64,000 bases of DNA from Limnochordales bacterium (GTDB lineage Bacteria > Bacillota > Limnochordia > Limnochordales > DUMU01). Of this stretch, positions 14,548 through 63,957 are shown in pieces (the first letter of the stretch is position 1; each line of letters opens with the position of its first letter). The stretch spans positions 124,001 through 188,000 of the forward strand of contig JADBKP010000001.1 in assembly GCA_014896315.1 (NCBI GenBank). The letters run 5' to 3'. The position numbers and the translations under genes were made by a program. The notes under the pieces were generated by a model. That model ran no database searches. It saw only the letters and a program-made list of their open reading frames with translations, and was not told where the DNA came from.

Positions 14548-16407
14548 CGGGAGTTTGACAGTGAAATGCCCATTTGAGCGCGTGTCCGGAGAAGAAGCGC
14601 TGCTTAATGCATATCCCGGGTGATCGCGCGTGTGACGGGGTAGTGCCAAAGCCATGGTTATTGGCGTGAAGATAATATGTTGCGCTTGGATGGTATGCGT
14701 GATATGGTTCGTAGTGGAAGGAGGTGACGCCGGGTGTTCCTGCGCCGTAAGATCGTCCGTCAGTCCGGTAAGGAGTACGTCTATTGGCAGCTGGTAGAGA
14801 ATGAGCGACGCAACGGCAAGGTCAGGCAGAAGGTGATCTGCACGGTTGGCCGAGAGGATGAGATGGATCGGGATCGAGTGGACAAGATGGTCGCCGCCCT
14901 GGCCAGTCAGACCCACAAGCTGCAGGTGCTGGACCTGGAAAAAGACCTGATACTCAAGCATACCCGGGAGTACGGAGCCTTAGTGGTACTGCAACGGCTT
15001 TGGGATGAACTCGGCATCGGAGACGAAATCCGGCGACAGATCAGAGACCGGGCCTTCACCTTCGATGTGGAAGCCGCGATCAGGGGTATGGTCTTCAACC
15101 GCTTGCTTGATCCCTTCAGTGATCGTGGTACGTATGATTGGCTTGTCAATGACGCTGACTTCCCGGAAGCCAAGAGCCTCAGCCTTCACCACCTTTACCG
15201 CGCGCTGGACGTCCTTCACGAGTACAAAGAACCGATCGAAGAAGGGCTCTTCCTGCGTATGCGAGATCTCTTCTCTTTGGACGTGAGCCTCGTCTTTTAC
15301 GATGCGACTCTCATCCGTAGCTACGGAAGGGAGTCAGAACTGATCCAGTACGGTCGGGACGGCGAGTTAGAGTTCCTCCTCACTCTTGCCAACAGCCGGG
15401 AGGGATTGCCCTTCGCTCATGAGGTGGAACCCGGCGCCACCGCTGACGTAACGACCGTGGAGAAAATGGTTAATGCCCTGCAGCGGCGGTTCCATGTCAC
15501 CCACTGTATCTTCGTGGGTGATCGCGGGATGCTGAGCGAAGAGAACCTGGAGCTACTGCGGGAAGCCGGCATCCACTACATCGTTGGCTGCCCGTTGCGA
15601 CGGGCCGGAGAGGTCCGAGACATCGTCTTGGCCTGGCCCGGTCGCTATCGCGAAGTGGCCGAGAACCTCAGGGTGAAAGAGGTCCGGGTCGAGGACCGCC
15701 GCTATATTGTCTGCTTCAATCCCATCGAGGCTGAATACGACCGCCAGACCCGGGAGTCCATCGTGGAGGAGCTTCGGGCCGAGCTGGAAGGTCTCGATCC
15801 CTGGTCACGGGAGGCCGCCAGGCTCTACTCCCACCCGGGTAAGGGCCGGTATCTCATGCGTCTCGATGACGGCCGTATCTGTTTGGACGAGGCCCGAATC
15901 CGGGAAGAAGCCCGTTATGACGGCAAGTACGTGATCCGAACCAGCTACGAGCAGCTTGACAGCGCGGAGGTGGCCAGAGCCTACCGGGATCTCCAAACGA
16001 TTGAGCGTTCCTTCCGGAGTCTGAAGAGCTTGGAAGAGATCAATCCCGTGTATCACTGGCGGGAGCGTCGTATCCGGGCGCATGTGCATGTGTGCGTGCT
16101 GGCCCACCTCCTGGAGCGCTATCTGGAGAAGAAGCTTCATGCGAAAGGGATCAAGATGACGGCGGCGGAGGCGCTCAAGCACCTCTCTCGGATCAAGTCA
16201 GCCTATATCGAGATCAAGGGAGCGATGTATCGCCTGCGCTCCGAGGCCTCCCCGGAGGCGGTTACCATCTTCCAGGCCCTGGGATACCGCATTCCACCAC
16301 GCATCGAGCCCCTGGCGAAGGACGACCGTGATGCCAAAACGGAGGCCTCGCGCGCCCAAAACGCCCTTGTATAGCCATTTCTTTGCATTACGGGTGTCAA
16401 AGTGCCG
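14548..16407 (+). mobile_element. IS1634-family insertion sequence, copy 1
   Basis: 1860 bp. Ends were placed by comparing the two copies in the window: terminal inverted repeats CGGGAGTTTGACA (14548-14560) and, inverted, CGGCACTTTGACA (16395-16407) match at 11 of 13. A 5-bp direct repeat GAGTA flanks it (14543-14547 and 16408-16412), proving transposition into this site. It differs from copy 2 by only two bases (15363 C/T and 15372 G/A), both silent. Confidence 0.93.
14734..16374 (+). CDS. IS1634-family transposase
   Basis: 546 residues, start GTG 14734 with GGAGGTGA upstream. The protein belongs to the IS4-superfamily DDE transposases, IS1634 type: the DDE residues are readable in VFYDATLIRS (first Asp), VGDRGMLSEEN (second Asp) and YRDLQTIERSFRSLK (Glu of the Y-(2)-R-(3)-E-(6)-K type signature). 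N-terminal FLRRKIVRQSGKEYVYWQLVEN is typical of the family. It is full length and intact, so the element may still be active. The protein is identical in sequence to that of the second copy at 21805-23445. Confidence 0.95.
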   Translation: MFLRRKIVRQSGKEYVYWQLVENERRNGKVRQKVICTVGREDEMDRDRVDKMVAALASQTHKLQVLDLEKDLILKHTREYGALVVLQRLWDELGIGDEIRRQIRDRAFTFDVEAAIRGMVFNRLLDPFSDRGTYDWLVNDADFPEAKSLSLHHLYRALDVLHEYKEPIEEGLFLRMRDLFSLDVSLVFYDATLIRSYGRESELIQYGRDGELEFLLTLANSREGLPFAHEVEPGATADVTTVEKMVNALQRRFHVTHCIFVGDRGMLSEENLELLREAGIHYIVGCPLRRAGEVRDIVLAWPGRYREVAENLRVKEVRVEDRRYIVCFNPIEAEYDRQTRESIVEELRAELEGLDPWSREAARLYSHPGKGRYLMRLDDGRICLDEARIREEARYDGKYVIRTSYEQLDSAEVARAYRDLQTIERSFRSLKSLEEINPVYHWRERRIRAHVHVCVLAHLLERYLEKKLHAKGIKMTAAEALKHLSRIKSAYIEIKGAMYRLRSEASPEAVTIFQALGYRIPPRIEPLAKDDRDAKTEASRAQNALV

Positions 16408-20745: not shown

Positions 20746-21408
20746 CTAGCTGATGCCCGGCCGGCCGAGCGATGGCGCGGTTGCTGCCGCTACCTGACTC
20801 CCCGCAAGAATGCCGATCTCCTGCAGCAGACGGGAAGCGTCGCGGCGGGTGGCTGTAAGGGTGAGCTTCCAGGCCGCCCGCAGCATGGCCGTATAAAGCT
20901 TGCGGCGTGCCCGGTCACAGCGGTCGCGGTCACCCCGGGTAGGAAAACGCCCTTCGGTAACACGACAGATGAAGACGATGGGAAACTCGATTCCCTTGGC
21001 GCTGTAAGTAGTGATCAGTTTGACAGACGGGTGGGTCACATCCAGCGCCTTGCTCCCGTCGGGCTTGAGGAAGAGTTCATAGGGAACGTCGTACTCGGCC
21101 AGCCCGGCGGCTACCTCGCGGAGAAATCGTCCGTCGTCGGCGAAGACGGCGATCGTTTCGGGAGGAGAGCCGGCAGCCAACTCGTTCCAGATCTCTTCAA
21201 CGACGCAGTCCTTCTCGGACTCCGGTGAGTCAGCCAAGATCAGGCGAGGTGCGGGACCATCTTCGGGCACACCCGAATCCGGAAGTACGAGGTCCTCCCC
21301 AAGCCGTTCATGCTGGTTAGCGATGAGTGGCTTGGCCGCTTCGATGATGGCCCGGGTCGTCCGGTAGCAGGTACGCAGAATGGTCACATGCCCGCCCGTC
21401 ACTGCCAT
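20746..21408 (-). pseudogene. C-terminal remnant of a UvrD-like superfamily 1 helicase
   Basis: About 220 codons that match only the C-terminal half of UvrD/Rep-type helicases: VTILRTCYRTTRAIIEAA (motif IV region), VKLITTYSAKGIEFPIVFICRVTEG (motif V) and RARRKLYTAMLRAAWKLTLTATR (motif VI). Walker A and B are absent. Upstream the frame continues as SSNER and then meets TGA near 21437, and the next 180 bases up to IS1634 copy 2 show no helicase motifs. It is therefore a 5'-truncated remnant. It converges with the NamZ gene. Confidence 0.8.
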
Positions 21409-21618: not shown

Positions 21619-23478
21619 CGGGAGTTTGACAGTGAAATGCCCATTTGAGCGCGTGTCCGGAGAAGAAGCGCTGCTTAATGCATATCCCGGGTGATCGCGC
21701 GTGTGACGGGGTAGTGCCAAAGCCATGGTTATTGGCGTGAAGATAATATGTTGCGCTTGGATGGTATGCGTGATATGGTTCGTAGTGGAAGGAGGTGACG
21801 CCGGGTGTTCCTGCGCCGTAAGATCGTCCGTCAGTCCGGTAAGGAGTACGTCTATTGGCAGCTGGTAGAGAATGAGCGACGCAACGGCAAGGTCAGGCAG
21901 AAGGTGATCTGCACGGTTGGCCGAGAGGATGAGATGGATCGGGATCGAGTGGACAAGATGGTCGCCGCCCTGGCCAGTCAGACCCACAAGCTGCAGGTGC
22001 TGGACCTGGAAAAAGACCTGATACTCAAGCATACCCGGGAGTACGGAGCCTTAGTGGTACTGCAACGGCTTTGGGATGAACTCGGCATCGGAGACGAAAT
22101 CCGGCGACAGATCAGAGACCGGGCCTTCACCTTCGATGTGGAAGCCGCGATCAGGGGTATGGTCTTCAACCGCTTGCTTGATCCCTTCAGTGATCGTGGT
22201 ACGTATGATTGGCTTGTCAATGACGCTGACTTCCCGGAAGCCAAGAGCCTCAGCCTTCACCACCTTTACCGCGCGCTGGACGTCCTTCACGAGTACAAAG
22301 AACCGATCGAAGAAGGGCTCTTCCTGCGTATGCGAGATCTCTTCTCTTTGGACGTGAGCCTCGTCTTTTACGATGCGACTCTCATCCGTAGCTACGGAAG
22401 GGAGTCAGAACTGATCCAGTACGGTCGGGACGGTGAGTTAGAATTCCTCCTCACTCTTGCCAACAGCCGGGAGGGATTGCCCTTCGCTCATGAGGTGGAA
22501 CCCGGCGCCACCGCTGACGTAACGACCGTGGAGAAAATGGTTAATGCCCTGCAGCGGCGGTTCCATGTCACCCACTGTATCTTCGTGGGTGATCGCGGGA
22601 TGCTGAGCGAAGAGAACCTGGAGCTACTGCGGGAAGCCGGCATCCACTACATCGTTGGCTGCCCGTTGCGACGGGCCGGAGAGGTCCGAGACATCGTCTT
22701 GGCCTGGCCCGGTCGCTATCGCGAAGTGGCCGAGAACCTCAGGGTGAAAGAGGTCCGGGTCGAGGACCGCCGCTATATTGTCTGCTTCAATCCCATCGAG
22801 GCTGAATACGACCGCCAGACCCGGGAGTCCATCGTGGAGGAGCTTCGGGCCGAGCTGGAAGGTCTCGATCCCTGGTCACGGGAGGCCGCCAGGCTCTACT
22901 CCCACCCGGGTAAGGGCCGGTATCTCATGCGTCTCGATGACGGCCGTATCTGTTTGGACGAGGCCCGAATCCGGGAAGAAGCCCGTTATGACGGCAAGTA
23001 CGTGATCCGAACCAGCTACGAGCAGCTTGACAGCGCGGAGGTGGCCAGAGCCTACCGGGATCTCCAAACGATTGAGCGTTCCTTCCGGAGTCTGAAGAGC
23101 TTGGAAGAGATCAATCCCGTGTATCACTGGCGGGAGCGTCGTATCCGGGCGCATGTGCATGTGTGCGTGCTGGCCCACCTCCTGGAGCGCTATCTGGAGA
23201 AGAAGCTTCATGCGAAAGGGATCAAGATGACGGCGGCGGAGGCGCTCAAGCACCTCTCTCGGATCAAGTCAGCCTATATCGAGATCAAGGGAGCGATGTA
23301 TCGCCTGCGCTCCGAGGCCTCCCCGGAGGCGGTTACCATCTTCCAGGCCCTGGGATACCGCATTCCACCACGCATCGAGCCCCTGGCGAAGGACGACCGT
23401 GATGCCAAAACGGAGGCCTCGCGCGCCCAAAACGCCCTTGTATAGCCATTTCTTTGCATTACGGGTGTCAAAGTGCCG
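21619..23478 (+). mobile_element. IS1634-family insertion sequence, copy 2
   Basis: 1860 bp, same orientation as copy 1 and offset by exactly 7071 bases. Same terminal inverted repeats. Flanked by a different 5-bp target duplication, CCCAA (21614-21618 and 23479-23483), so it arose by an independent insertion. Its right end lies 54 bases before the start of the DUF488 gene cassette. Confidence 0.93.
21805..23445 (+). CDS. IS1634-family transposase
   Basis: 546 residues, GTG start with GGAGGTGA; protein identical to the copy at 14734-16374, with the same DDE residues (FYDATLI, GDRGML, QTIERSFRSLK). Two silent base differences from copy 1: 22434 T for C and 22443 A for G. Intact, so either copy could act on both. 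Confidence 0.95.
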   Translation: MFLRRKIVRQSGKEYVYWQLVENERRNGKVRQKVICTVGREDEMDRDRVDKMVAALASQTHKLQVLDLEKDLILKHTREYGALVVLQRLWDELGIGDEIRRQIRDRAFTFDVEAAIRGMVFNRLLDPFSDRGTYDWLVNDADFPEAKSLSLHHLYRALDVLHEYKEPIEEGLFLRMRDLFSLDVSLVFYDATLIRSYGRESELIQYGRDGELEFLLTLANSREGLPFAHEVEPGATADVTTVEKMVNALQRRFHVTHCIFVGDRGMLSEENLELLREAGIHYIVGCPLRRAGEVRDIVLAWPGRYREVAENLRVKEVRVEDRRYIVCFNPIEAEYDRQTRESIVEELRAELEGLDPWSREAARLYSHPGKGRYLMRLDDGRICLDEARIREEARYDGKYVIRTSYEQLDSAEVARAYRDLQTIERSFRSLKSLEEINPVYHWRERRIRAHVHVCVLAHLLERYLEKKLHAKGIKMTAAEALKHLSRIKSAYIEIKGAMYRLRSEASPEAVTIFQALGYRIPPRIEPLAKDDRDAKTEASRAQNALV

Positions 23479-23532: not shown

Positions 23533-23997
23533 ATGGTGAATAACAGCACTTCAGGCAAGCCTGTACTCTGCACGATCGGTTACACGAAAAAGAGCTTGCG
23601 CCGCTTTATTCAGCTGCTGCTTGATGCTGGCGTCGAGAAGGTGGTTGATATTCGGCGTAACAATACCTCGCAGCTGGCCGGATTTAGCAAAAAGGACGAC
23701 CTCGCCTATATCCTGAGTCTAGTCAATATAGACTATGAGCACATAATCGACTTGTCCCCCTCCGCGCAGCTGCTCGCGCGCTATCATAAAGATCACGACT
23801 GGGCGGCTTTCGTAGCCGACTTTCGCAAAGAGGGCAAGGAACGACAAATGCTCGAGCTGGCCAAGCAGCTGGCCTACTCCCCGCAGAGACTCTGCCTGCT
23901 CTGTACCGAAGATCGCCCCGATCACTGTCACCGCCGTATAGTGGCGGAGTGGATAAAATCCTTGCGGCAAGAGATCGAGATAATCCACCTCGTATGA
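23533..23997 (+). CDS. DUF488 family protein, first of two
   Basis: 154 residues from ATG 23533, with GGGGAGGCAAG upstream. The DUF488 pattern is clear: LCTIGYTKKSLRRFIQLLLDAGVEKVVDIRRNNTSQLAGFSK at the N-terminus (start of an alpha/beta fold with an Arg-Asn pocket), then LSPSAQLLARYHKDHDW, and the C-terminal LLCTEDRPDHCHRRIVAEWI with the conserved Cys-x(2)-Glu and CHR triad. The biochemical activity of DUF488 proteins is not settled; the Cys and His residues suggest a nuclease- or thiol-chemistry role. It leads a cassette with another DUF488 protein, a dual-OB protein and a CRISPR-type CARF effector, so a defence function is likely. An IS element sits directly upstream and may have cut the native promoter. 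Confidence 0.82.
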   Translation: MVNNSTSGKPVLCTIGYTKKSLRRFIQLLLDAGVEKVVDIRRNNTSQLAGFSKKDDLAYILSLVNIDYEHIIDLSPSAQLLARYHKDHDWAAFVADFRKEGKERQMLELAKQLAYSPQRLCLLCTEDRPDHCHRRIVAEWIKSLRQEIEIIHLV

Positions 23998-24051
23998 AGA
24001 CCATCGCTTGAGAGTCATGACTGCCAGCGTTAACGAGAAGAAGGGAACTAA

Positions 24052-24552
24052 ATGCCAGGTAAGGTAATACTTGCTCATATCGGACAGGTATCCGAGCTAG
24101 GCGAGGCGGAGCGCTGGCTGATTACCCGCGGATACCGTTCAATCGCAGGCGTACAGTACCACCCGGAGCTTGCTCCCGACCCTGCCCTGTTCCGTTGGAT
24201 GCGCGAACAGAAGGTGAAGGGAGAACCCTGGTGGGAGGAATACACGCGGCGATTCATCGATGAAATGTCTACTCCCAAGTTTGAACAAGCTCTTAATTCC
24301 CTCCGTTGCCGCCTCGACCAGGGCCGCGATGTCGCTCTGATATGTTTTTGCCGTACAACTCAATGTCATCGTTACCTGGTCGGACAGCGGTTGGCAGCTC
24401 TAGGCTACGTAGTTGAGAGTTTGGACACTGAAAGCAGCAGTCGCAGCAAAGACGCGCCTACTACAGGCGAAACTCCAAATCGGACTCAGAACTCCTCCAA
24501 TAAGTCTGACAGCGGTGGGAGCGGTACGCAGCTCCGACTGTTCGACTGGTAA
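24052..24552 (+). CDS. DUF488-like protein, second of two, with QLRLF tail
   Basis: 166 residues, ATG 24052 with AAGGGA upstream, 54 bases after the first DUF488 gene. The pattern WWEEYTRRFIDEM ... RLDQGRDVALICFCRTTQCHRYLVGQRLAALGY is the form seen in the other DUF488 branch, with FC-x4-CHR as the conserved site. The N-terminal third (KVILAHIGQVSELGEAERW) lacks the usual TIGY motif, so it may be a divergent sister that pairs with the first protein. Residues 130-158 are a Ser/Thr/Asn-rich linker, and the last residues TQLRLFDW contain QLRLF, which fits the bacterial sliding-clamp binding consensus QLxLF. That link to the replication clamp is inference. Confidence 0.75.
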   Translation: MPGKVILAHIGQVSELGEAERWLITRGYRSIAGVQYHPELAPDPALFRWMREQKVKGEPWWEEYTRRFIDEMSTPKFEQALNSLRCRLDQGRDVALICFCRTTQCHRYLVGQRLAALGYVVESLDTESSSRSKDAPTTGETPNRTQNSSNKSDSGGSGTQLRLFDW

Positions 24553-24573
24553 CCGGTCAAGGAGCGGATCGTC

Positions 24574-25203
24574 GTGCCGGAAAGGATTATCCTGCTGGCG
24601 GTAACGGACATGCACAACGGCTATTTTTGCATTGCAGGAGTACGGGACGGACGCTGGGTAAGGCCAGTTTTGCCAGGTGCTCGTCAGCTTACCGCCGACG
24701 ACATCCAGACAGACGGTAAGCTATGGAGGCCATGGGATATTATCGAAGTGGACAGGTTCTTTCCAGTACCGGTTGTTTGGCCACATAGCGAGGATCTGGG
24801 CTTCGATCCGAAACTGGCTCGGTGCGTCGGGTCTATAGATGATCCTGGTCAACGGAGTGATCTTCTCGCGCAATACGCCTGTAATGATGGCTCGTGGTTG
24901 ACACTGCTAAACGGTGAAGGTCGCAAATCGCTTTGCCTTCTCCGGGCTGCTCAGATCAACTGGTTTCCAAGTACTCGCAATCCCAGTAAGCAACGAGCTG
25001 CACTGGTTGTTGGCCAGAAGCTCTATAACGGATACGGCGACGGTTACAGCATAGTCGATCACTATGCCTCGGACTGGTGCAATGGGAAGGAAAAGAGTTC
25101 ATCCGCCAAAGCTCCGTATGTACTGCTCGGGCTGAGCCGGCGCTACAACGAGCGCTTCTGGCCCATGGTGTTGCGCACATTCTGCGCTCCCAGTTACCGT
25201 TGA
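24574..25203 (+). CDS. Dual OB-fold domain protein, putative defence component
   Basis: 209 residues, GTG 24574 with AAGGAGCG upstream, 21 bases after the second DUF488 gene. The sequence has the look of the small dual-OB proteins that accompany CRISPR and DUF488 genes: a first half ILLAVTDMHNGYFCIAGVRDGRWVRPVLPG, then GKLWRPWDIIEVDRF, and a second half beginning KSLCLLRAAQINWFP with APYVLLGLSRRYNERFWPMVLRTFC at the end. OB folds bind single-stranded nucleic acid or nucleotides. No catalytic motif is visible. Its fixed place between DUF488 and CARF genes suggests a nucleic-acid recognition role. The domain name comes from memory of similar annotated proteins, not from a search. Confidence 0.65.
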   Translation: MPERIILLAVTDMHNGYFCIAGVRDGRWVRPVLPGARQLTADDIQTDGKLWRPWDIIEVDRFFPVPVVWPHSEDLGFDPKLARCVGSIDDPGQRSDLLAQYACNDGSWLTLLNGEGRKSLCLLRAAQINWFPSTRNPSKQRAALVVGQKLYNGYGDGYSIVDHYASDWCNGKEKSSSAKAPYVLLGLSRRYNERFWPMVLRTFCAPSYR

Positions 25204-25276
25204 AGAGAACTGCCCACGAGGGCTGGCCTTTTGTCCGGAAGAGGCCTGCCGATGTGTTCAGGGGGGGGATGATTCC

Positions 25277-26422
25277 ATGTCAGAGCGCAAACCGAGCAAA
25301 TCCAGGATGCTGGTCGTATCATCATGCGGTACGAGCCTGTTGTTGAACAATGTATATCAGAGCCGATGCGGGTCCGGGGATGAACTGCGCCGTCTCTTGC
25401 AGCGGCATGCCAACAGCAAAGAAACTGAGATCCCTGCCGAAGACAAAGCACGAATCGACTGCCGGATCAACGAATGCCGCACTGCGCTCTTGCAGGCCGG
25501 CCCTGTCGAGGCCCGGCAGTTGAGTGCCGAACTCAACGGCCTGCTCGGACTCTACAAAGATCTACGACCGCGTCGCCAGGATCTGCTTTTCTTTCTCTCC
25601 ACGGACACGTATCTGGGCGAGGCGGTCAGCAGAATAATCGCCGAGTGGCTGCGGCAGTTTGAGATATCTCCGCAGCTGATTGCAATTGAGAATTTGGCTA
25701 CGAATTCGGTGGAAACATTCCGCTGGGGAGTACAAGAACTCACCAGCTGGTGTCAGAAGACTCTCCCCGGATATCGTAAGGATTACCATATCGTTTTCAA
25801 CGTCACCGGGGGCTTCAAAGGCGTGCAAGGGATACTAACCACACTGGGCCACGTGTATGCTGATGAGATAGTTTATATCTTCGAAGGTAGCGATGCTTTG
25901 CTGCGCATTCCGCACCTGCCGGTGCGCTGGGAGATGAAAGAGATACTGATGGAGCATATTACTGTCTTTCGCCGGTTGGCAAACCGCCAACGCGTCCCCC
26001 TTGCTGAGCTGGAGGGCGTGCCTACCAGCCTGTTCGAGGTGGAGTATGACGGAATGGCAGTCTTGTCCATCCTGGGGTCGATCCTGTGGGAACAGCATAA
26101 ACAGGAGTTATACTCCGTCCGCCTGCTTCCGCCCCCCAGTGATCGTATCCGGTATTCACGCCGCTTTGAACGAGATGTGGAAAAAGTAACCGATTCAAGC
26201 CTGCTCTACGTTCTCAACGAACAAATCGATGATTTCCACCGTTATCTTATAGAGAATCGCACCTACAATCCCAGTTCGCTCAATGTACACGAGGTGCATG
26301 AACCTCCTGTTCCCGGAGTGACCCACGAGTTTTACGCCTGGTCGCACCGGGATGCAGAGCGAGTCTATTTCCACTTTGATGGTAATGGAGCTGTACTGGA
26401 CCATCTCGGACCACATCTTTGA
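25277..26422 (+). CDS. CRISPR-associated CARF protein (APE2256/TIGR02619 type) with RelE-like C-terminus
   Basis: 381 residues, ATG 25277 with a G-rich ribosome site. Residues 10-215 are a CARF domain of the APE2256/TIGR02619 kind: MLVVSSCGTSLLLNN (ligand loop), LLFFLSTDTYLGEAVSRIIAEWL and IVFNVTGGFKGVQGILTTLGHVYADEIVYIFEGSDALLRIP. CARF domains bind cyclic oligoadenylates made by type III CRISPR Cas10. After a helical linker the last ~90 residues end in HEFYAWSHRDAERVYFHFDGNGAVLDHLGPHL, which looks like the strands of a RelE/ParE toxin (R-V-x-F-H-F then L-D-x-L-x-x-H). This is the layout of Cami1, a CARF-RelE mRNA interferase; I infer a cOA-activated ribosome-dependent RNase. No Cas10 or other cas gene is adjacent. 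A ring-nuclease role of the CARF domain is the alternative. Confidence 0.78.
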   Translation: MSERKPSKSRMLVVSSCGTSLLLNNVYQSRCGSGDELRRLLQRHANSKETEIPAEDKARIDCRINECRTALLQAGPVEARQLSAELNGLLGLYKDLRPRRQDLLFFLSTDTYLGEAVSRIIAEWLRQFEISPQLIAIENLATNSVETFRWGVQELTSWCQKTLPGYRKDYHIVFNVTGGFKGVQGILTTLGHVYADEIVYIFEGSDALLRIPHLPVRWEMKEILMEHITVFRRLANRQRVPLAELEGVPTSLFEVEYDGMAVLSILGSILWEQHKQELYSVRLLPPPSDRIRYSRRFERDVEKVTDSSLLYVLNEQIDDFHRYLIENRTYNPSSLNVHEVHEPPVPGVTHEFYAWSHRDAERVYFHFDGNGAVLDHLGPHL

Positions 26423-26491
26423 TCCATTGAGTTCGTACGGGAATAGATACCCTTCCACGCCGCGCGGTCGCCGCACAGCATAGGGAAAGAT

Positions 26492-26527
26492 CGGGGGTTC
26501 GGAGCATCCGAGCCCCCGGTCTATAAT
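26492..26527 (+). promoter_or_regulatory. Hairpin followed by TATAAT upstream of the Bce-like operon
   Basis: GGGGGTTCGGA (26493-26503) pairs with TCCGAGCCCCC (26507-26517), 11 bp with one G-T wobble and a 3-base loop. TATAAT follows at 26522-26527. The hairpin may end the CARF cassette transcript, while the -10 box may serve the response regulator 87 bases on. No good -35. Confidence 0.4.
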
Positions 26528-26613
26528 ACGGAGAGGGATACGCTGGCTGATCGCTGGCAAGCTGTTTACGTGGGCCATACCGCGACGGGAAACGGAGGTG
26601 CAACCAGGATCGG

Positions 26614-27330
26614 ATGCAGGCCTATCATGTGATGATAGTGGAAGACGACACCAAGATCGCAGCAATCCTGGCCGAAGAACTGGAAAGGTATGGCCACAGG
26701 GTCTCTCTCGCCCGGGATTTTGGGCAAATAAAAGAGGAGTTTCTCCGCCTCAAGCCGGACCTGGTCATCCTGGACATCAACCTGCCACGGTTTGACGGCT
26801 ATTATTGGTGCCGGCAGATCCGCACCGTGTCTAAGGTCCCCATCGTCTTCATTTCGGCCCGGGACGACGACATCGACCAGGTGCGGGCACTGGAAAATGG
26901 GGGCGATGACTATATAACCAAGCCCTTCACCCTGGAATTGGTCCTGGCCAAAGTAAACAGCATTCTGCGCCGGACCTACGGCGAATACGCCATAGGGCGC
27001 GACCCGCAACTTCTCCGGGTAGGCGGCCTGCTGCTAAATAGCGCGACCAACCGGGTCGCCCGGGAGGAGAAGGAGAGCGAGCTCACCCCCAAGGAGTTTC
27101 GCCTTCTCTGGCTCCTGGCAGAACGGGCGGGGGAGATCGTCAGCCGGGAGGAGCTGCTTGAGGCTCTCTGGGACGACACCGAATTCGTCGATGACAACAC
27201 GCTAACGGTCAACGTCGCCCGCGTCCGCCGCCGGCTCGAGGAGCTCGGATTGCCGGGGGCAATCGAAACCAAGCGGGGTCAAGGCTACCGGCTCAATCTG
27301 ACCCCGAGCGGGGACGATCGCGTACCATGA
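26614..27330 (+). CDS. OmpR-family response regulator, BceR-like
   Basis: 238 residues. Receiver domain: acidic pair DD at 11-12, phosphoacceptor Asp54 in VILDINLP, conserved Lys103 in ITKPF. A winged-helix output domain follows (residues ~135-230: LTPKEFRLLWLLAERAGEIVSREELLEALWDD ... VDDNTLTVNVARVRRRLEELG ... ETKRGQGYRL). The gene overlaps the kinase start by 4 bases and is followed by an ABC transporter of the Bce type, so it is the regulator of a peptide-antibiotic sensing and detoxification module. A perfect BceR-type box lies in front of the transporter genes. Confidence 0.93.
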   Translation: MQAYHVMIVEDDTKIAAILAEELERYGHRVSLARDFGQIKEEFLRLKPDLVILDINLPRFDGYYWCRQIRTVSKVPIVFISARDDDIDQVRALENGGDDYITKPFTLELVLAKVNSILRRTYGEYAIGRDPQLLRVGGLLLNSATNRVAREEKESELTPKEFRLLWLLAERAGEIVSREELLEALWDDTEFVDDNTLTVNVARVRRRLEELGLPGAIETKRGQGYRLNLTPSGDDRVP

Positions 27331-27350
27331 GCATGAGCATGAGCATGAGC
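27327..27350 (+). repeat. (ATGAGC)4 hexanucleotide microsatellite
   Basis: Four perfect tandem ATGAGC units at the 5' end of the kinase gene. Gain or loss of units keeps the frame but changes the number of start codons and the spacing to the upstream ribosome site. Confidence 0.95.
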
Positions 27351-28514
27351 ATGGGCACGAACACAGGAATGATGAACATGCGAAGGTATATCTGGGCCTT
27401 CCTCCGCGACCGGGCAGTATACATAGCTGCATACGCCGCCTTCGGCACCGTGACCGTAGCCGTGGTCCAGCTCGATCTCTGGCTCTCCTCGGCAAGCCTC
27501 CAATTGAGCAACGTTCTGTACCTTTACCTTCTGGGCCTGGTAGGACTGGTCGTGGTGCTCGCCGTCGATTACCAGCGACAGGCAGCCTTCTGGCGCTGGT
27601 CCGAGGAGCGAAGCAGGCTCTGTACCGGAGAACCCCCCCGCTCCCTCTCTCTGGATGAACTGGCGCTCCTTCCGGAGCCCCGCACGCTGGAGCAGGAAAA
27701 CTTCTCTCAGGCCTGGTCCGCGCTTTACGGCCGTCTCCGGTCCGAGCTGGCCAGGGAACAAGAGCGAGGAAGGCGGAATATCCGGTTTCTCAGCCAGTGG
27801 GCGCACCACATGAAAACCCCGCTCGCCGTGATCGCCCTGGAGATCCAAAAAGGCCGCAAACACCCCCTGCCGCCCGAATTGGAGGCAATCCTGAGCAGCA
27901 TTGAGGAGGAGACCGAGCGGCTCAACCACTCGTTACAAATGTTGTTGAACGTCGTGCGCCTGGAAGACTTCACCGCCGATTTCCGGGTTGAGCCCGTCGA
28001 TCTGGTGGAGTTGTTGCGACGTCTGATCAACGACCACAAACGGTCGTTCATCAACCATCGTGTCTACCCTAAGCTGGAACTGGCAGAGGAGAGCCAACAG
28101 GCTCTTGCCGGCACCTGGCTTGTCCGCAGCGATGCCAAATGGCTCCGCTTTGTGCTGGAGCAGCTCCTCTCCAACGCCATCAAGTACTCATCCCGGCCCG
28201 AGCGCGATGGGCAGGTCATCTTCCGCCTGAGCCGTGCCGGAGAGGATACGGTGCTCGAGATCGCCGACAACGGCATCGGTATTCCCCCTGAGGATCTCGA
28301 CCGGGTCTTCGAACCGTTCTACACCGGCACCAATGGCCGGGCCTTCCCTCAGTCCACGGGCCTCGGGCTCTACCTCGCCTGGGAGGTCTGCAACCGGCTG
28401 GGTCACGGCCTGCGCCTGGAATCCCGCCGGGGCGAGGGCACGCGGGTCTTCCTGCACTTCCCGCACGACTACGCCATCTTTTCAGGCCTGGAGACTGAGA
28501 CCGTGATCAGCTGA
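27327..28514 (+). CDS. Sensor histidine kinase, BceS-like intramembrane type
   Basis: 395 residues if read from the first ATG, which overlaps the regulator stop (ATGA). The first 24 bases are four perfect copies of ATGAGC, giving MSMSMSMSM and several in-frame start codons; the conserved protein begins around MRRYIWAFLRDR. Two transmembrane helices (about 31-50 and 63-82) with almost no extracellular loop mark an intramembrane-sensing kinase. H-box FLSQWAHHMKTPLAVI has the phospho-His at about residue 160. N-box EQLLSNAIKYS, G1 DNGIGIPPEDLDRVFEPFYTG and G2 TGLGLYLAWEV are intact. BceS kinases do not sense antibiotics directly but through the BceAB transporter, which is encoded next. Confidence 0.9.
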   Translation: MSMSMSMSMGTNTGMMNMRRYIWAFLRDRAVYIAAYAAFGTVTVAVVQLDLWLSSASLQLSNVLYLYLLGLVGLVVVLAVDYQRQAAFWRWSEERSRLCTGEPPRSLSLDELALLPEPRTLEQENFSQAWSALYGRLRSELAREQERGRRNIRFLSQWAHHMKTPLAVIALEIQKGRKHPLPPELEAILSSIEEETERLNHSLQMLLNVVRLEDFTADFRVEPVDLVELLRRLINDHKRSFINHRVYPKLELAEESQQALAGTWLVRSDAKWLRFVLEQLLSNAIKYSSRPERDGQVIFRLSRAGEDTVLEIADNGIGIPPEDLDRVFEPFYTGTNGRAFPQSTGLGLYLAWEVCNRLGHGLRLESRRGEGTRVFLHFPHDYAIFSGLETETVIS

Positions 28515-60607: not shown

Positions 60608-62185
60608 TCAGCCGGGTGGAAGTAAGATCTCCTTCTCAAGACCTTTAAACATCCCCTCAACAATGCTTAGCGGATCGGACACACCGAGGGCGCGCAGCAC
60701 TCTCACGGCCGGGCCACCGTTATACAAGAAACGCGGGGGTTGATTATTAGACCAGACACCCGCTACCTTAAACTCCGTCTCCGCACGTCTACGGTCATCC
60801 CGCACAAGCCGGCCGTGAACAGCCGCGTTACGGTAGTTCCTGATCGCCGGCCGGCGGTCGTCCAGTGCCTGCTGCATCACCTTTAACTCTGTCCTGATAG
60901 GTTCGTCCAGTACGTCAAGCCAGCGATCAACGTGCTCTCGGTGCGTATGATACCAATAACAGCCAGGCCGTCCCGGGATCGGTGTGAGAGGTGCCCTGGA
61001 TTCATGAGGCCCAAGCAGCACATCGGGGGGCTTATGTCCCGGTCTGGCCTCCAATTCGCGTTCGATCTCGTTCAAGCTGCTGACCCAGTTCGCCCTCTGT
61101 ATAGCATCGAGCAGGGCCGTATCCCAGAAGGTGACGGAGTTGATGACCGCTTCCTGTATTCTTCCTGCCCGTAACGCCGCCTGAGCGCGGGCTGCCGCCC
61201 AGAAGCAGCGCAAGGGTATATTGAGGCGTGTCAGGTATTTGGGAGCGCCAGCCGGAACAGGACTGCGACCGGCCAACCAGTCGGCCGCGACAATGACCGG
61301 CTCGGCCCAGTGTTGCTCCCACTCGTCCCCGAGCACCCTCTCGGCGAATGAGGCTGCCCCCTCGAGATCTCCCTTGCGAATGCGGGCAAGGGCTGCCTCG
61401 CGGAGCCGGTAGGCTTCTTGTGGAGCCTTCTGCAAATAGGCGCCGTACCTGACCAGGTGATTACTGTGCTGGGGTACTTCCACGATCTCGACACGTTCTG
61501 AACCGAAAATGAGGTTGGCAACCTGAACGATTAGCTCTTTGAGCGCAGGAAATCCCCCAGTTCTCGCGATTATCACATGAGATGGTCTAAGATCCTCCTG
61601 CAGTCGCGCAAGAGCGAGGTGAAGCCGCCTCACCAGTTCCTGTGCCAATGGCCGCTGGACCGGGTCACTGCCCTCCAGTCGCTCCCTGCCTTGCAAGAGA
61701 TTTACCCATTGCGCTCCTCCCGGCCATTTGGAGTGCGCAGGATCCCAGGGCTCGCGTCGCTGCAAAGCCAACTCACGGGCTAACGTAATGTCGCCTCTGT
61801 TTCGTGCCTCGATCCACCCTGCCAGCACCGGGCCTGCCGCGGCCGGCTCGGAGCGAAAGATCTCCGGATCACGTTGTGTACTGAATATTACGGCCGCAGT
61901 TACACGCTCTAGCCGGTCAAGAACGTACTTTAACTTCGCCGGAACCAGCCGGATCCTGCCGTCTGTATCGCGAAGACAATCCGTAATATCAGGACCTATT
62001 CCCCCGCGTGCCTCGAATTCCCTTATCTGAACCGCTTCTTCGTCTACGACCCAGTCTTCACCATTCAGCAGACTCTCATGGAAAACTCGTGTCTCTGCTA
62101 CAGTTGTCCGGCGTTCCTCACCTGCATGCCTGATTACCACTTGCAGATCGGTTTCGCCAGCCGGTACAAGCAGCAGCGTGGTCAT
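60608..62185 (-). CDS. CARF-HEPN ribonuclease (Csm6/Csx1-like), CRISPR type III ancillary protein
   Basis: 525 residues, ATG 62185 with AGGAGG eight bases upstream, overlapping the RAMP gene by 4 bases (ATGA). N-terminal half reads as a CARF-type Rossmann domain: TTLLLVPAGETDLQVVIRH at the start, AAVIFSTQRDPEIFRSEP and SHVIIARTGGFPALKELIVQVANLIFG, where the TGGF loop is a CARF landmark. The C-terminal helical domain contains the HEPN RNase motif R-x4-H in RNYRNAAVHG (Arg452, His457). Such proteins are switched on by cyclic oligoadenylate and cut RNA without sequence preference. The exact Csx family is not certain. Its translational coupling to a RAMP protein shows it belongs to a type III locus extending past the right edge. 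Confidence 0.75.
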   Translation of the reverse strand: MTTLLLVPAGETDLQVVIRHAGEERRTTVAETRVFHESLLNGEDWVVDEEAVQIREFEARGGIGPDITDCLRDTDGRIRLVPAKLKYVLDRLERVTAAVIFSTQRDPEIFRSEPAAAGPVLAGWIEARNRGDITLARELALQRREPWDPAHSKWPGGAQWVNLLQGRERLEGSDPVQRPLAQELVRRLHLALARLQEDLRPSHVIIARTGGFPALKELIVQVANLIFGSERVEIVEVPQHSNHLVRYGAYLQKAPQEAYRLREAALARIRKGDLEGAASFAERVLGDEWEQHWAEPVIVAADWLAGRSPVPAGAPKYLTRLNIPLRCFWAAARAQAALRAGRIQEAVINSVTFWDTALLDAIQRANWVSSLNEIERELEARPGHKPPDVLLGPHESRAPLTPIPGRPGCYWYHTHREHVDRWLDVLDEPIRTELKVMQQALDDRRPAIRNYRNAAVHGRLVRDDRRRAETEFKVAGVWSNNQPPRFLYNGGPAVRVLRALGVSDPLSIVEGMFKGLEKEILLPPG

Positions 62186-63957
62186 CGTCTCTGCCTCCTA
62201 CCACGAGAATGCTCTTTGCGAATTTCTGCATGAAAGGCGAAGATTTTACCACCACGGCTCGGATATGGCGCCCATTCCGTATCACGAAAATCGTGAATAG
62301 CGAGCCATCTTCCTAGTGATCGAGTATCGATCAGCTTAGCCGCCTCAGCAACACACTCGCATAGCGACGTTTCATCCAATAACTCCAGGCGATAGCCGTT
62401 ATCACCATCACATAGCCGATAAGCCGCATCAACAGTGACGACAACGCTGCCCCAACCTAGGGGACGGGCGTGGCCTAACTTGGTGGCATAGCGAGGTTGA
62501 TTGGGAGTACCGTCGGTCTTAACACCGGCTTCGTTCCGAATTGCTTCCGGCAGCATGCGAACAAACTGGTCCGGGCAGAGGGCAATCAGGAGGGCACCCA
62601 GCTCTGCCGGGCTCAAATCACGGAACCGGACCTTAAATCTAAACTGCGTTCCGGGAGTGCTGACAAAACGAGCAATGGTAGCCCGTTCGTTGAGGAGGTC
62701 ACCATCGCTGTCTGCACTGTAATCCCTGGCGCTTACAGCAGCTGCCGGGTTATGCTGGTAAAACTTCCGGCCGGCCAGATCACCCGGCGGGTCCCAGTCC
62801 GGCAGATCGCCGTAGGTAACAACCACTCCCCGGTCCAGCCGCTGCCGTTCGCCTAACTTGGACTGGTCGATGTAAAACTCAACCGCACTCGGCTTGGGTG
62901 CCGCCAGCTCTTTAAGAGATATGGCAAAACCGCGGTTGGGAGCCAGAAAGCGCTGCGCATCCGTCCTTCCCGGCGGAATCTGCTCTACGGCCATGTTGAA
63001 CGAGACACGGCCGGCAAGTTGTGTAAAGTCACCGCTCCCGATCCCGGCACTGCCGGGGTTATCGCCTGTGTAGCCAAAAAGAGCCCGGGCGCCCGTCAGG
63101 TGGAGGGGACGGCCGGCAGGATCTTTCTCAAGCTCTGCAGGCCGAGGAGAAACCTCCGGCCGCAGCACCCAGCTGCCATCCTCAGCTCGCCGGCGGCAAA
63201 CTGTATTCACATAGCGCCAGCGGTAATAATAGTGGTGACCGTAGGATACGACACGCTTCTTTTGCGTGTCCCACTCTACGAAAATGAGGTCTCCCTTAGC
63301 AAAACCTCGTTCAGCTGCTCGCTTGAGATGACCAATCGCCTGCGACCGCTTTTCGTGGTCGTTACCCAGGGAAGGGTGACGTGGACTTACGTGTCCCCCT
63401 TCAGGATCAACCAGGTGGAGGTAGGTCTCAACCCAAAAAGTATGAACTGAGTCGTCAATCGGCACATTTCTTATTGGAGGAACGGGAGTCCTGGAAGCCT
63501 TCGGGTCGGCCGAAATATTCAGCAATCGATTACTAAGGACAGGCTTGTCATTGAACTCGGCCTCCCAGCCCTCCATTCCTCCTCTATACCTGTGCTGCAG
63601 AGTGCTATCGCGGCAAAAACGCGCCCGTTCCATAGGATATATGTCCACAATAGAAGGCAATCGATAACACCGGCCTGCATATTGGAAGTCACGAACCTCC
63701 CTGACGATGGCCGGACGCGGTTCTAGAATCAGTCTAACTGGTTGCTGGTTTCCTCCCTTTGGCCACATAAGGTTCGGCCGGTAGGAGAACGACTGGTCCC
63801 AAACCCGCTCCATCGGCGCTCCCAAAAGCGCTCCTATCGACTGGCGGACCATGCCCTTAATCTGCTCGCCAGGGATCAGTACCCGCCCCCGCTCGTCTCG
63901 CAGCGGCTCAAGAACAGTACGGTTACCATGCACCCGTCGTCCCGGGAACCAGGGCAC
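62182..63957 (-). CDS. TIGR03986-like CRISPR-associated RAMP protein, N-terminus probably incomplete
   Basis: 591 residues from GTG 63957. RAMP features: VLIPGEQIKGMVRQSIGALLG (the glycine-rich PGxxxKGxxR loop), GARALFGYTGDN, AGRVSFNMAVEQ, FLAPNRGFAIS, LAGRKFYQHNPAAAV and LGHARPLGWGSVVV near the C-terminus. The order fits TIGR03986, a large multi-RAMP protein of type III-associated loci. The usual beta1 strand before the PGxxxKG loop is very short: the first 20 residues are PWFPGRRVHGNRTVLEPLRD, and an in-frame TAG lies directly before the start codon. So either translation starts here, coupled to a gene ending at TAG, or a frameshift hides the true N-terminus beyond 63958. It overlaps the CARF-HEPN gene by 4 bases. 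Confidence 0.72.
   Translation of the reverse strand: MPWFPGRRVHGNRTVLEPLRDERGRVLIPGEQIKGMVRQSIGALLGAPMERVWDQSFSYRPNLMWPKGGNQQPVRLILEPRPAIVREVRDFQYAGRCYRLPSIVDIYPMERARFCRDSTLQHRYRGGMEGWEAEFNDKPVLSNRLLNISADPKASRTPVPPIRNVPIDDSVHTFWVETYLHLVDPEGGHVSPRHPSLGNDHEKRSQAIGHLKRAAERGFAKGDLIFVEWDTQKKRVVSYGHHYYYRWRYVNTVCRRRAEDGSWVLRPEVSPRPAELEKDPAGRPLHLTGARALFGYTGDNPGSAGIGSGDFTQLAGRVSFNMAVEQIPPGRTDAQRFLAPNRGFAISLKELAAPKPSAVEFYIDQSKLGERQRLDRGVVVTYGDLPDWDPPGDLAGRKFYQHNPAAAVSARDYSADSDGDLLNERATIARFVSTPGTQFRFKVRFRDLSPAELGALLIALCPDQFVRMLPEAIRNEAGVKTDGTPNQPRYATKLGHARPLGWGSVVVTVDAAYRLCDGDNGYRLELLDETSLCECVAEAAKLIDTRSLGRWLAIHDFRDTEWAPYPSRGGKIFAFHAEIRKEHSRGRRQRR

What the first reader, a model, noticed from the sequence alone, without database searches (positions are those of the whole stretch)
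23533..26422. Four-gene cassette: two DUF488 proteins, dual-OB protein and CARF-RelE-like effector, without Cas genes
The genes are packed on one strand with gaps of 54, 21 and 73 bases, so they are likely one unit. The last protein is a clear APE2256/TIGR02619-type CARF protein whose C-terminus looks like RelE, the layout of Cami1. CARF effectors normally work with Cas10-made cyclic oligoadenylate, yet no Cas10, Csm/Cmr or array is nearby. The DUF488 pair has two different site types (CTED...CHR and CFC...CHR), which suggests a heteromeric enzyme. It could be a stand-alone nucleotide-sensing defence system, or a satellite of the type III locus 34 kb away.
Basis: partly seen in the sequence, partly recalled or inferred. 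Interest (0 to 1): 0.78.

Follow-up and report, generated by a model that had tools for sequence, protein, structure and literature searches.

The report
Defence trio beside CRISPR-type ribosome toxin
Four neighbouring bacterial genes turn out to be two known kinds of (candidate) antiviral parts placed side by side: a widespread three-gene defence candidate of unknown mechanism, and an RNA-cutting toxin of a family whose owners nearly always also carry a type III CRISPR system, here encoded elsewhere in the same genome.

Summary
In detail: four same-strand genes (23533-26422), gaps 54/21/73 bp, two DUF488 proteins with different cysteine sites, a dual-OB protein and a CARF protein. The idea of a recurrent four-gene, Cas-free system is not supported. 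The first three genes are a variant of PADLOC's candidate system PDC-M45 (DUF488+DUF488+DuOB), which recurs as a contiguous trio in at least a dozen genomes, without this CARF gene. The fourth is a Cami1-type CARF-wHTH-RelE effector: AlphaFold pLDDT 93, best PDB matches Cami1, ligand-pocket residues S20/K181 invariant in 48 relatives. 53 of 80 relatives' loci hold type III cas genes within 8 kb; all 27 family-positive genomes of the phylum sample show type III evidence against 26% expected. Only 1 of 80 relatives' loci has the trio's genes nearby. The window's genome does encode a GGDD Cas10 (III-D locus, another contig), so the CARF protein most likely works in trans with it. The trio is not tied to Cas10 (5/12 genomes) and probably acts on its own; its mechanism is unknown. 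One lead: the modelled DuOB matches HIN-200 DNA-sensing domains best, but weakly (pLDDT 70). All four genes are GC-poor and sit 62 bp from an IS1634 copy.

The parts
23533..23997 (+). DUF488-a (154 aa), CxE...CHR site; counterpart of PDC-M45C
   Evidence: Pfam DUF488 1.1e-25; PADLOC PDC-M45C 9e-42 over residues 12-153; 36-49% identical to the ~145-aa DUF488 of recurring trios
24052..24552 (+). DUF488-b (166 aa), DUF488-N3a subclade, CFC...CHR site; stands where PADLOC's PDC-M45B normally is
   Evidence: Pfam DUF488-N3a 3.3e-17; relatives next to DUF488-a and DuOB in L067, L070, L075; two relatives weakly match DUF4326
24574..25203 (+). DuOB, dual OB-fold protein (209 aa), divergent PDC-M45A
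   Evidence: Pfam DuOB 3e-12; PDC-M45A only 1e-3 over residues 3-67; 16-24% identity to trio DuOBs with shared invariant residues; AlphaFold pLDDT 70, Foldseek top matches HIN-200 domains, E >= 1.3e-3
25277..26422 (+). CARF-wHTH-RelE effector (381 aa), Cami1-type
   Evidence: Pfam Cas_APE2256 4e-27; PADLOC CARF7--CARF_RelE 1e-106; AlphaFold pLDDT 92.9 and Foldseek best matches Cami1 8phb/8phj; S20 and K181 invariant in 48 sequences
26488..26521 (+). strong hairpin after the CARF gene, possible end of the transcription unit
   Evidence: 16-pair stem, fold of 26440-26530 -44 kcal/mol, z -4.7; no U-run follows; not tested as a terminator
21625..23471 (+). IS1634-family insertion sequence ending 62 bp before the first DUF488 start
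   Evidence: NCBIfam IS1634 7e-107; 99.9% identical to a second copy at 14554-16400
20746..21408 (-). UvrD-type helicase C-terminal fragment upstream of the insertion sequence; possible remnant of a defence gene
   Evidence: PADLOC NERD+UvrD 3e-16 and GajB 6e-13, matching only the C-terminal ends of the profiles
60608..62185 (-). CARF-HEPN protein, second possible trans effector (CARF_m10)
   Evidence: PADLOC CARF_m10--CARF_HEPN 5e-75
62182..63957 (-). Cas7-type III-D RAMP protein without cas10 nearby
   Evidence: PADLOC Csm3/Cas7_IIId 5e-43; ORFs of L006

Best explanation
A foreign, GC-poor block that puts two separate defence elements end to end. (1) A PDC-M45-type trio: two DUF488 (rhodanese/phosphatase-like) proteins, one with a CxE...CHR and one with a CxC...CHR site, plus a DuOB nucleic-acid-binding protein; inferred to form one complex in which DuOB recognises nucleic acid and the DUF488 pair does thiol chemistry on it or on a nucleotide (inference; nothing shown). 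(2) A Cami1-type CARF-wHTH-RelE ribonuclease: most likely the cyclase-competent Cas10 of the III-D locus on contig C20 senses invader RNA and makes cyclic oligoadenylate (cA4 in studied Cami1), which binds the CARF dimer and switches on ribosome-dependent mRNA cleavage. Shown here: genes, folds, pocket residues, GGDD Cas10 in the genome, family-wide link to type III. Inferred: signalling in trans, co-transcription, activity. The neighbourhood of the two is probably accretion in a defence patch rather than one mechanism.
For: CARF part. Type III link: 53/80 relatives' loci with cas10/RAMP genes within 8 kb although many contigs are short; closest PDB relative by fold is Cami1; 24 of 27 CARF-RelE genomes of the phylum have Cas10 at E<=1e-10 against 99/379 (p 6e-12) and the other three have type III loci by inspection; 11 of 14 genomes with an unlinked copy have a Cas10 elsewhere. 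Own genome: GGDD Cas10 III-D locus and CRISPR array; no CARF effector recognised beside that Cas10. Trio; Cas10 in 5/12 DuOB genomes, no link (p 0.31). Composite: trio genes in 1/80 CARF loci, no CARF-RelE beside the trios. Foreign block: GC 53-55% against 59-64%, insertion sequence next door.
Against: Short gaps, one strand, similar base composition, no strong hairpin between the genes and one after the last fit a single operon, so a working link is not excluded. Trio and CARF genes also meet in two other type III islands: L143 (CARF-RelE 1.9 kb from DuOB-DUF488, a Cas6-like ORF downstream) and Allochromatium tepidum pAt1 (DuOB-DUF488-DUF488 beside csm6, csx16, cas1). The two closest CARF relatives are unlinked to cas genes and one of their genomes shows no Cas10. 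The window's RelE domain has H338 where 77% of relatives have K, so activity is uncertain.
Confidence: 0.66

Rival explanations
1. One four-gene defence system: the DUF488-DuOB complex senses invader nucleic acid and makes, modifies or removes a nucleotide signal that controls the CARF-RelE toxin, without Cas10.
For: Tight same-strand packing and shared composition; unlinked CARF-RelE genes exist, one in a genome with no Cas10 found; some plasmid trios carry an mSLOG domain, a nucleotide-binding fold by established knowledge, fused to the partner protein; trio and CARF genes meet in two other loci.
Against: The order is not found in 80 CARF loci or in the DuOB loci inspected; CARF-RelE tracks Cas10 across genomes (p 6e-12); no nucleotide-polymerising domain in the trio; the own genome has a cyclase Cas10.
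Confidence: 0.13
2. The trio is an accessory of type III CRISPR, for example limiting or resetting signalling or handling crRNA or target RNA, and its place beside a CARF effector reflects that.
For: Neighbourhoods L063 (csm6, csx16, cas1), L143 (CARF-RelE and Cas6-like) and L061 (a DUF488-b relative near cas6).
Against: Cas10 in only 5/12 DuOB genomes against 26% background (p 0.31); most trios sit elsewhere: beside Wadjet-like genes (L069, L071), CBASS (L197), or among housekeeping genes and plasmid backbones.
Confidence: 0.14
3. Chance neighbours left by insertion-sequence traffic; some genes may be decaying and without present function.
For: Two near-identical IS1634 copies, one 62 bp upstream; a truncated UvrD helicase beside it; divergent DuOB, and H338 in place of the usual K in the RelE domain.
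Against: All four frames are open and full length, signature residues are kept, and the trio gene set matches trios elsewhere.
Confidence: 0.07

Closest known systems
Cami1 (CARF-RelE, PDB 8phb/8phj; PADLOC CARF7--CARF_RelE, PDLC01934)
   Same: CARF-wHTH-RelE layout, full-length structural match, sequence match over CARF and linker, conserved ligand-pocket residues, family found in type III loci
   Different: C-terminal domain not alignable to Cami1 by sequence; gene unlinked from cas genes; H338 in the RelE domain; only about 21% identity in the structural alignment
PDC-M45 (PADLOC candidate defence system; PDC series from Payne et al. 2024, as cited in PMC12988326)
   Same: DUF488 (C) and DuOB (A) plus a second DUF488-clan protein, adjacent and on one strand
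   Different: DUF488-b does not match the PDC-M45B model and has a CxC...CHR site; DuOB is divergent; order a-b-DuOB; a CARF gene follows
Plasmid DuOB - DUF488 - mSLOG/DUF4326 cassettes (L199, L201, L202)
   Same: DuOB and DUF488 with a third small protein; DUF488-b relatives weakly match DUF4326
   Different: third protein is DUF4326 with an mSLOG part; no CARF gene
APE2256-family ring nucleases (Sis0811, SSO1393)
   Same: same CARF subfamily; S12 and K169 of Sis0811 correspond to S20 and K181
   Different: ring nucleases lack the RelE domain

Membership tests
Cami1 (CARF-RelE effector) | APE2256-type CARF domain with conserved ligand-pocket residues | tested here: met
   Cas_APE2256 4e-27; S20/K181 equal Sis0811 S12/K169 by the phmmer alignment and are invariant in 48 sequences
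Cami1 (CARF-RelE effector) | C-terminal RelE fold after a winged-helix linker | tested here: met
   AlphaFold2 pLDDT 92.9; Foldseek best matches 8phj/8phb over 384-393 alignment columns, E about 1e-15, though the global TM-score is only about 0.5
Cami1 (CARF-RelE effector) | RelE catalytic residues present | tested here: inconclusive
   T349, R362 invariant and H350, E351 at 96-98%, but position 338 is H where 77% have K; catalytic residues of Cami1 not mapped here
Cami1 (CARF-RelE effector) | Activation by cA4 and ribosome-dependent mRNA cleavage | not testable with these tools
   needs purified protein
Cami1 (CARF-RelE effector) | Encoded in a type III CRISPR locus (usual context, not strictly defining: unlinked relatives exist) | tested here: not met
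   no type III locus within 30 kb; III-D locus with GGDD Cas10 on contig C20 of the same genome
PDC-M45 | DuOB protein (A) | tested here: met
   Pfam DuOB above cut-off, but PDC-M45A only 1e-3
PDC-M45 | DUF488 ~145 aa (C) | tested here: met
   PDC-M45C 9e-42
PDC-M45 | DUF488 ~204 aa (B) | tested here: not met
   DUF488-b has no PDC-M45B match; the same replacement occurs in L067, L070, L075. Hence filed as a variant, not as a strict member
PDC-M45 | Anti-phage activity | not testable with these tools
   candidate only; no paper in the library mentions PDC-M45
Stand-alone four-gene system | The four genes recur together | tested here: not met
   trio genes near 1 of 80 CARF-RelE loci, not contiguous; no CARF-RelE beside the DuOB loci
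Stand-alone four-gene system | Present in genomes without Cas10 | tested here: not met
   own genome has a GGDD Cas10

The most novel reading that the evidence does not exclude
The DUF488-DUF488-DuOB trio is a bacterial nucleic-acid-sensing defence module whose sensor has the tandem OB fold of animal HIN-200 DNA sensors (AIM2, IFI16), and in this genome it has been joined to a CARF-RelE toxin in one operon that it helps to control.
Probability: 0.07. Interest if true: 0.8.

Novelty: new variant of a known kind. Interest (0 to 1): 0.42.

Why it matters
It turns a striking-looking 'Cas-free CARF system' into two testable statements. First, CARF-RelE genes unlinked from cas loci are not rare (for example in cyanobacteria) and their genomes usually hold a Cas10 elsewhere, which supports effectors working in trans, a question raised for type III loci by Hoikkala et al. 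(PMC11229360). Second, the untested candidate PDC-M45 is broader than its PADLOC models: the B position can be a CxC...CHR DUF488 or an mSLOG/DUF4326 protein, and its DuOB part may resemble HIN-200 DNA sensors.

Tried and rejected
Rfam and tandem-repeat scans of the window: no RNA family, no CRISPR array. Viral-contig searches with DuOB, DUF488-b and the CARF alignment: no relatives; phages: no DuOB. Window DuOB against plasmids: nothing. PDB sequence searches with DUF488-a, DUF488-b and DuOB: no credible match. Cas10-palm hits at low score include GGDEF proteins (the E. coli control rings), so weak hits in two orphan genomes were read individually and discarded. The rhodanese/DUF488 survey that I remember as naming DuOB and DUF488-N3 (10.1093/nargab/lqad029) is not in the library, so nothing is taken from it.
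Full report
WHAT IS THERE. Four + strand genes occupy 23533-26422 with gaps of 54, 21 and 73 bases. Pfam gives DUF488 (1e-25), DUF488-N3a (3e-17), DuOB (3e-12) and Cas_APE2256 (4e-27). PADLOC gives PDC-M45C for the first (9e-42), a weak PDC-M45A for the third and CARF7--CARF_RelE end to end for the fourth (1e-106). Their GC content is 53-55% against 59-64% for the flanks, and an IS1634 copy, 99.9% identical to one 7 kb upstream, ends 62 bases before the first start codon. A hairpin of 16 pairs follows the CARF gene (z -4.7); no comparable one was seen in the two gaps folded. One transcript is plausible but not shown.

THE CARF PROTEIN. An AlphaFold2 model from 48 sequences has mean pLDDT 92.9 with a CARF domain (about 1-215), a winged-helix linker and a C-terminal domain of helices and three strands. 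The four best PDB matches are all chains of Cami1, over 384-393 alignment columns (E about 1e-15; TM about 0.5 with large rmsd, as expected if domains are placed differently), followed by APE2256 ring nucleases. Sequence search also finds these, but only over the CARF and linker part. Residues S12 and K169 of Sis0811, the ones mutated in the PDB entries, fall on S20 and K181, invariant in all 48. In the RelE part T349 and R362 are invariant and H350/E351 nearly so; position 338 is K in 77% but H here. So it looks like Cami1 by anatomy; activity is untested.

IS IT TIED TO TYPE III CRISPR? A scan of about 85,000 genomes gave 213 relatives; the best 80 were inspected. Within 8 kb, 53 have Cas10 or RAMP genes, a lower bound because many contigs are short. 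Fourteen unlinked copies were followed to their genomes: 11 have a Cas10 elsewhere (ten with a visible GGDD, one cut by the assembly), three do not. In a sample of the window's own phylum, 27 of 399 genomes have this family; 24 of these 27 have a Cas10 at E<=1e-10, against 99 of 379 overall (Fisher p 6e-12). The other three are the window's own genome, which has a III-D Cas10 by PADLOC, and G101 and G382, whose CARF genes lie in Cmr-type loci. These counts are not corrected for shared ancestry, but they span many families.

THE OWN GENOME. It has a III-D locus with a GGDD Cas10, Csm3-like, Csx10-like, Csm2 and Csx21 genes on contig C20, a CRISPR array of about seven repeats on the same contig, a III-F-like locus (Cas10 with HD and without GGDD, Cas5, Cas7) about 60 kb downstream of the cassette, and a CARF-HEPN plus lone Cas7 at the window's right end. 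No CARF effector was recognised beside the C20 Cas10. So the premise 'no Cas10' holds for the neighbourhood, not for the cell.

THE TRIO. DUF488-a, DUF488-b and DuOB are a recurrent unit. Of 12 DuOB genomes in the phylum sample, nine have a contiguous trio and one more is cut by a contig end; more occur in a second phylum and on plasmids. Some lie beside other defence genes: Wadjet-like genes (L069, L071, read from the sequence), CBASS (L197), or a type III island with csm6, csx16 and cas1 (L063). The second DUF488 comes in two forms: a ~204-aa form with CxE...CHR (PADLOC's B) and the short form with CxC...CHR seen here and in L067, L070 and L075. Several plasmids have instead an mSLOG/DUF4326 protein, and two short-form relatives weakly match DUF4326. 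DuOB genomes have Cas10 in 5 of 12 cases, no clear excess (p 0.31).

DO THE FOUR BELONG TOGETHER? Among 80 CARF-RelE loci only L143 has DuOB and DUF488 nearby (1.9 kb away, other genes between). No CARF-RelE was found beside the DuOB loci, searched within 1.5 kb in all and several kb in ten (only the window's CARF protein was used as query). Co-occurrence of the two in genomes is borderline (3 where 0.9 expected, p 0.05) and unlinked in the other two cases. The simplest account is accretion of two defence elements on imported DNA.

HOW IT PROBABLY WORKS. CARF part: Cas10-made cyclic oligoadenylate (cA4 in studied Cami1; PMC11229360) binds the CARF dimer and activates mRNA cleavage in the ribosome, slowing phage production. 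Trans signalling between loci has been proposed for type III systems (PMC11229360). Trio: DuOB binds nucleic acid, and the DUF488 pair carries out cysteine chemistry on it or on a nucleotide; this is inference from fold classes only. The DuOB model is of moderate quality (pLDDT 70); its first 31 PDB matches are all HIN-200 domains, the tandem-OB DNA sensors of animal innate immunity, but with E no better than 1.3e-3 and TM about 0.35. That is a lead, not a result.

VERDICT. Observation confirmed; interpretation partly supported. An unlinked Cami1-type effector next to a variant of candidate system PDC-M45. Moderately interesting for trans signalling and for widening PDC-M45; not a new Cas-free CARF system on present evidence.

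Noticed in passing
window 24574-25203 (DuOB model m3517d763a42f): The first 31 PDB matches of the modelled DuOB are all HIN-200 domains (AIM2/IFI16/p202 type DNA sensors); weak (E >= 1.3e-3, pLDDT 70) but uniform.
   Followed up: partly
window 60608-63957 and L006: CARF-HEPN gene overlapping a lone Cas7-III-D gene, without cas10 nearby; second possible trans effector.
   Followed up: partly
L184:7039-10933 (G000:C1:209039-212933): Type III-F-like locus: Cas10 with an N-terminal HD motif but no GGDD, Cas5 and Cas7.
   Followed up: partly
L009:7086-7700 (G000:C14): Short CARF7 relative (204 aa) without a RelE part, possibly a broken effector.
   Followed up: no
L199, L201, L202: Plasmids of Citrobacter and Acinetobacter carry DuOB - DUF488 - mSLOG/DUF4326 cassettes, apparently the same defence candidate with another third protein.
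   Followed up: partly
L063 (Allochromatium tepidum pAt1): DuOB-DUF488-DUF488 directly beside csm6, with csx16 and cas1 close by.
   Followed up: no
window 14554-16400 and 21625-23471: Two 99.9% identical IS1634-family copies in the same orientation, 5.2 kb apart.
   Followed up: partly
window 20746-21408: UvrD-type helicase C-terminal fragment, most like NERD-UvrD and GajB proteins, beside the insertion sequence.
   Followed up: no
window 27326-27357: Hexanucleotide repeat at the start of a sensor kinase gene gives an MSMSMSMSM protein start; may be a phase-variable start.
   Followed up: no
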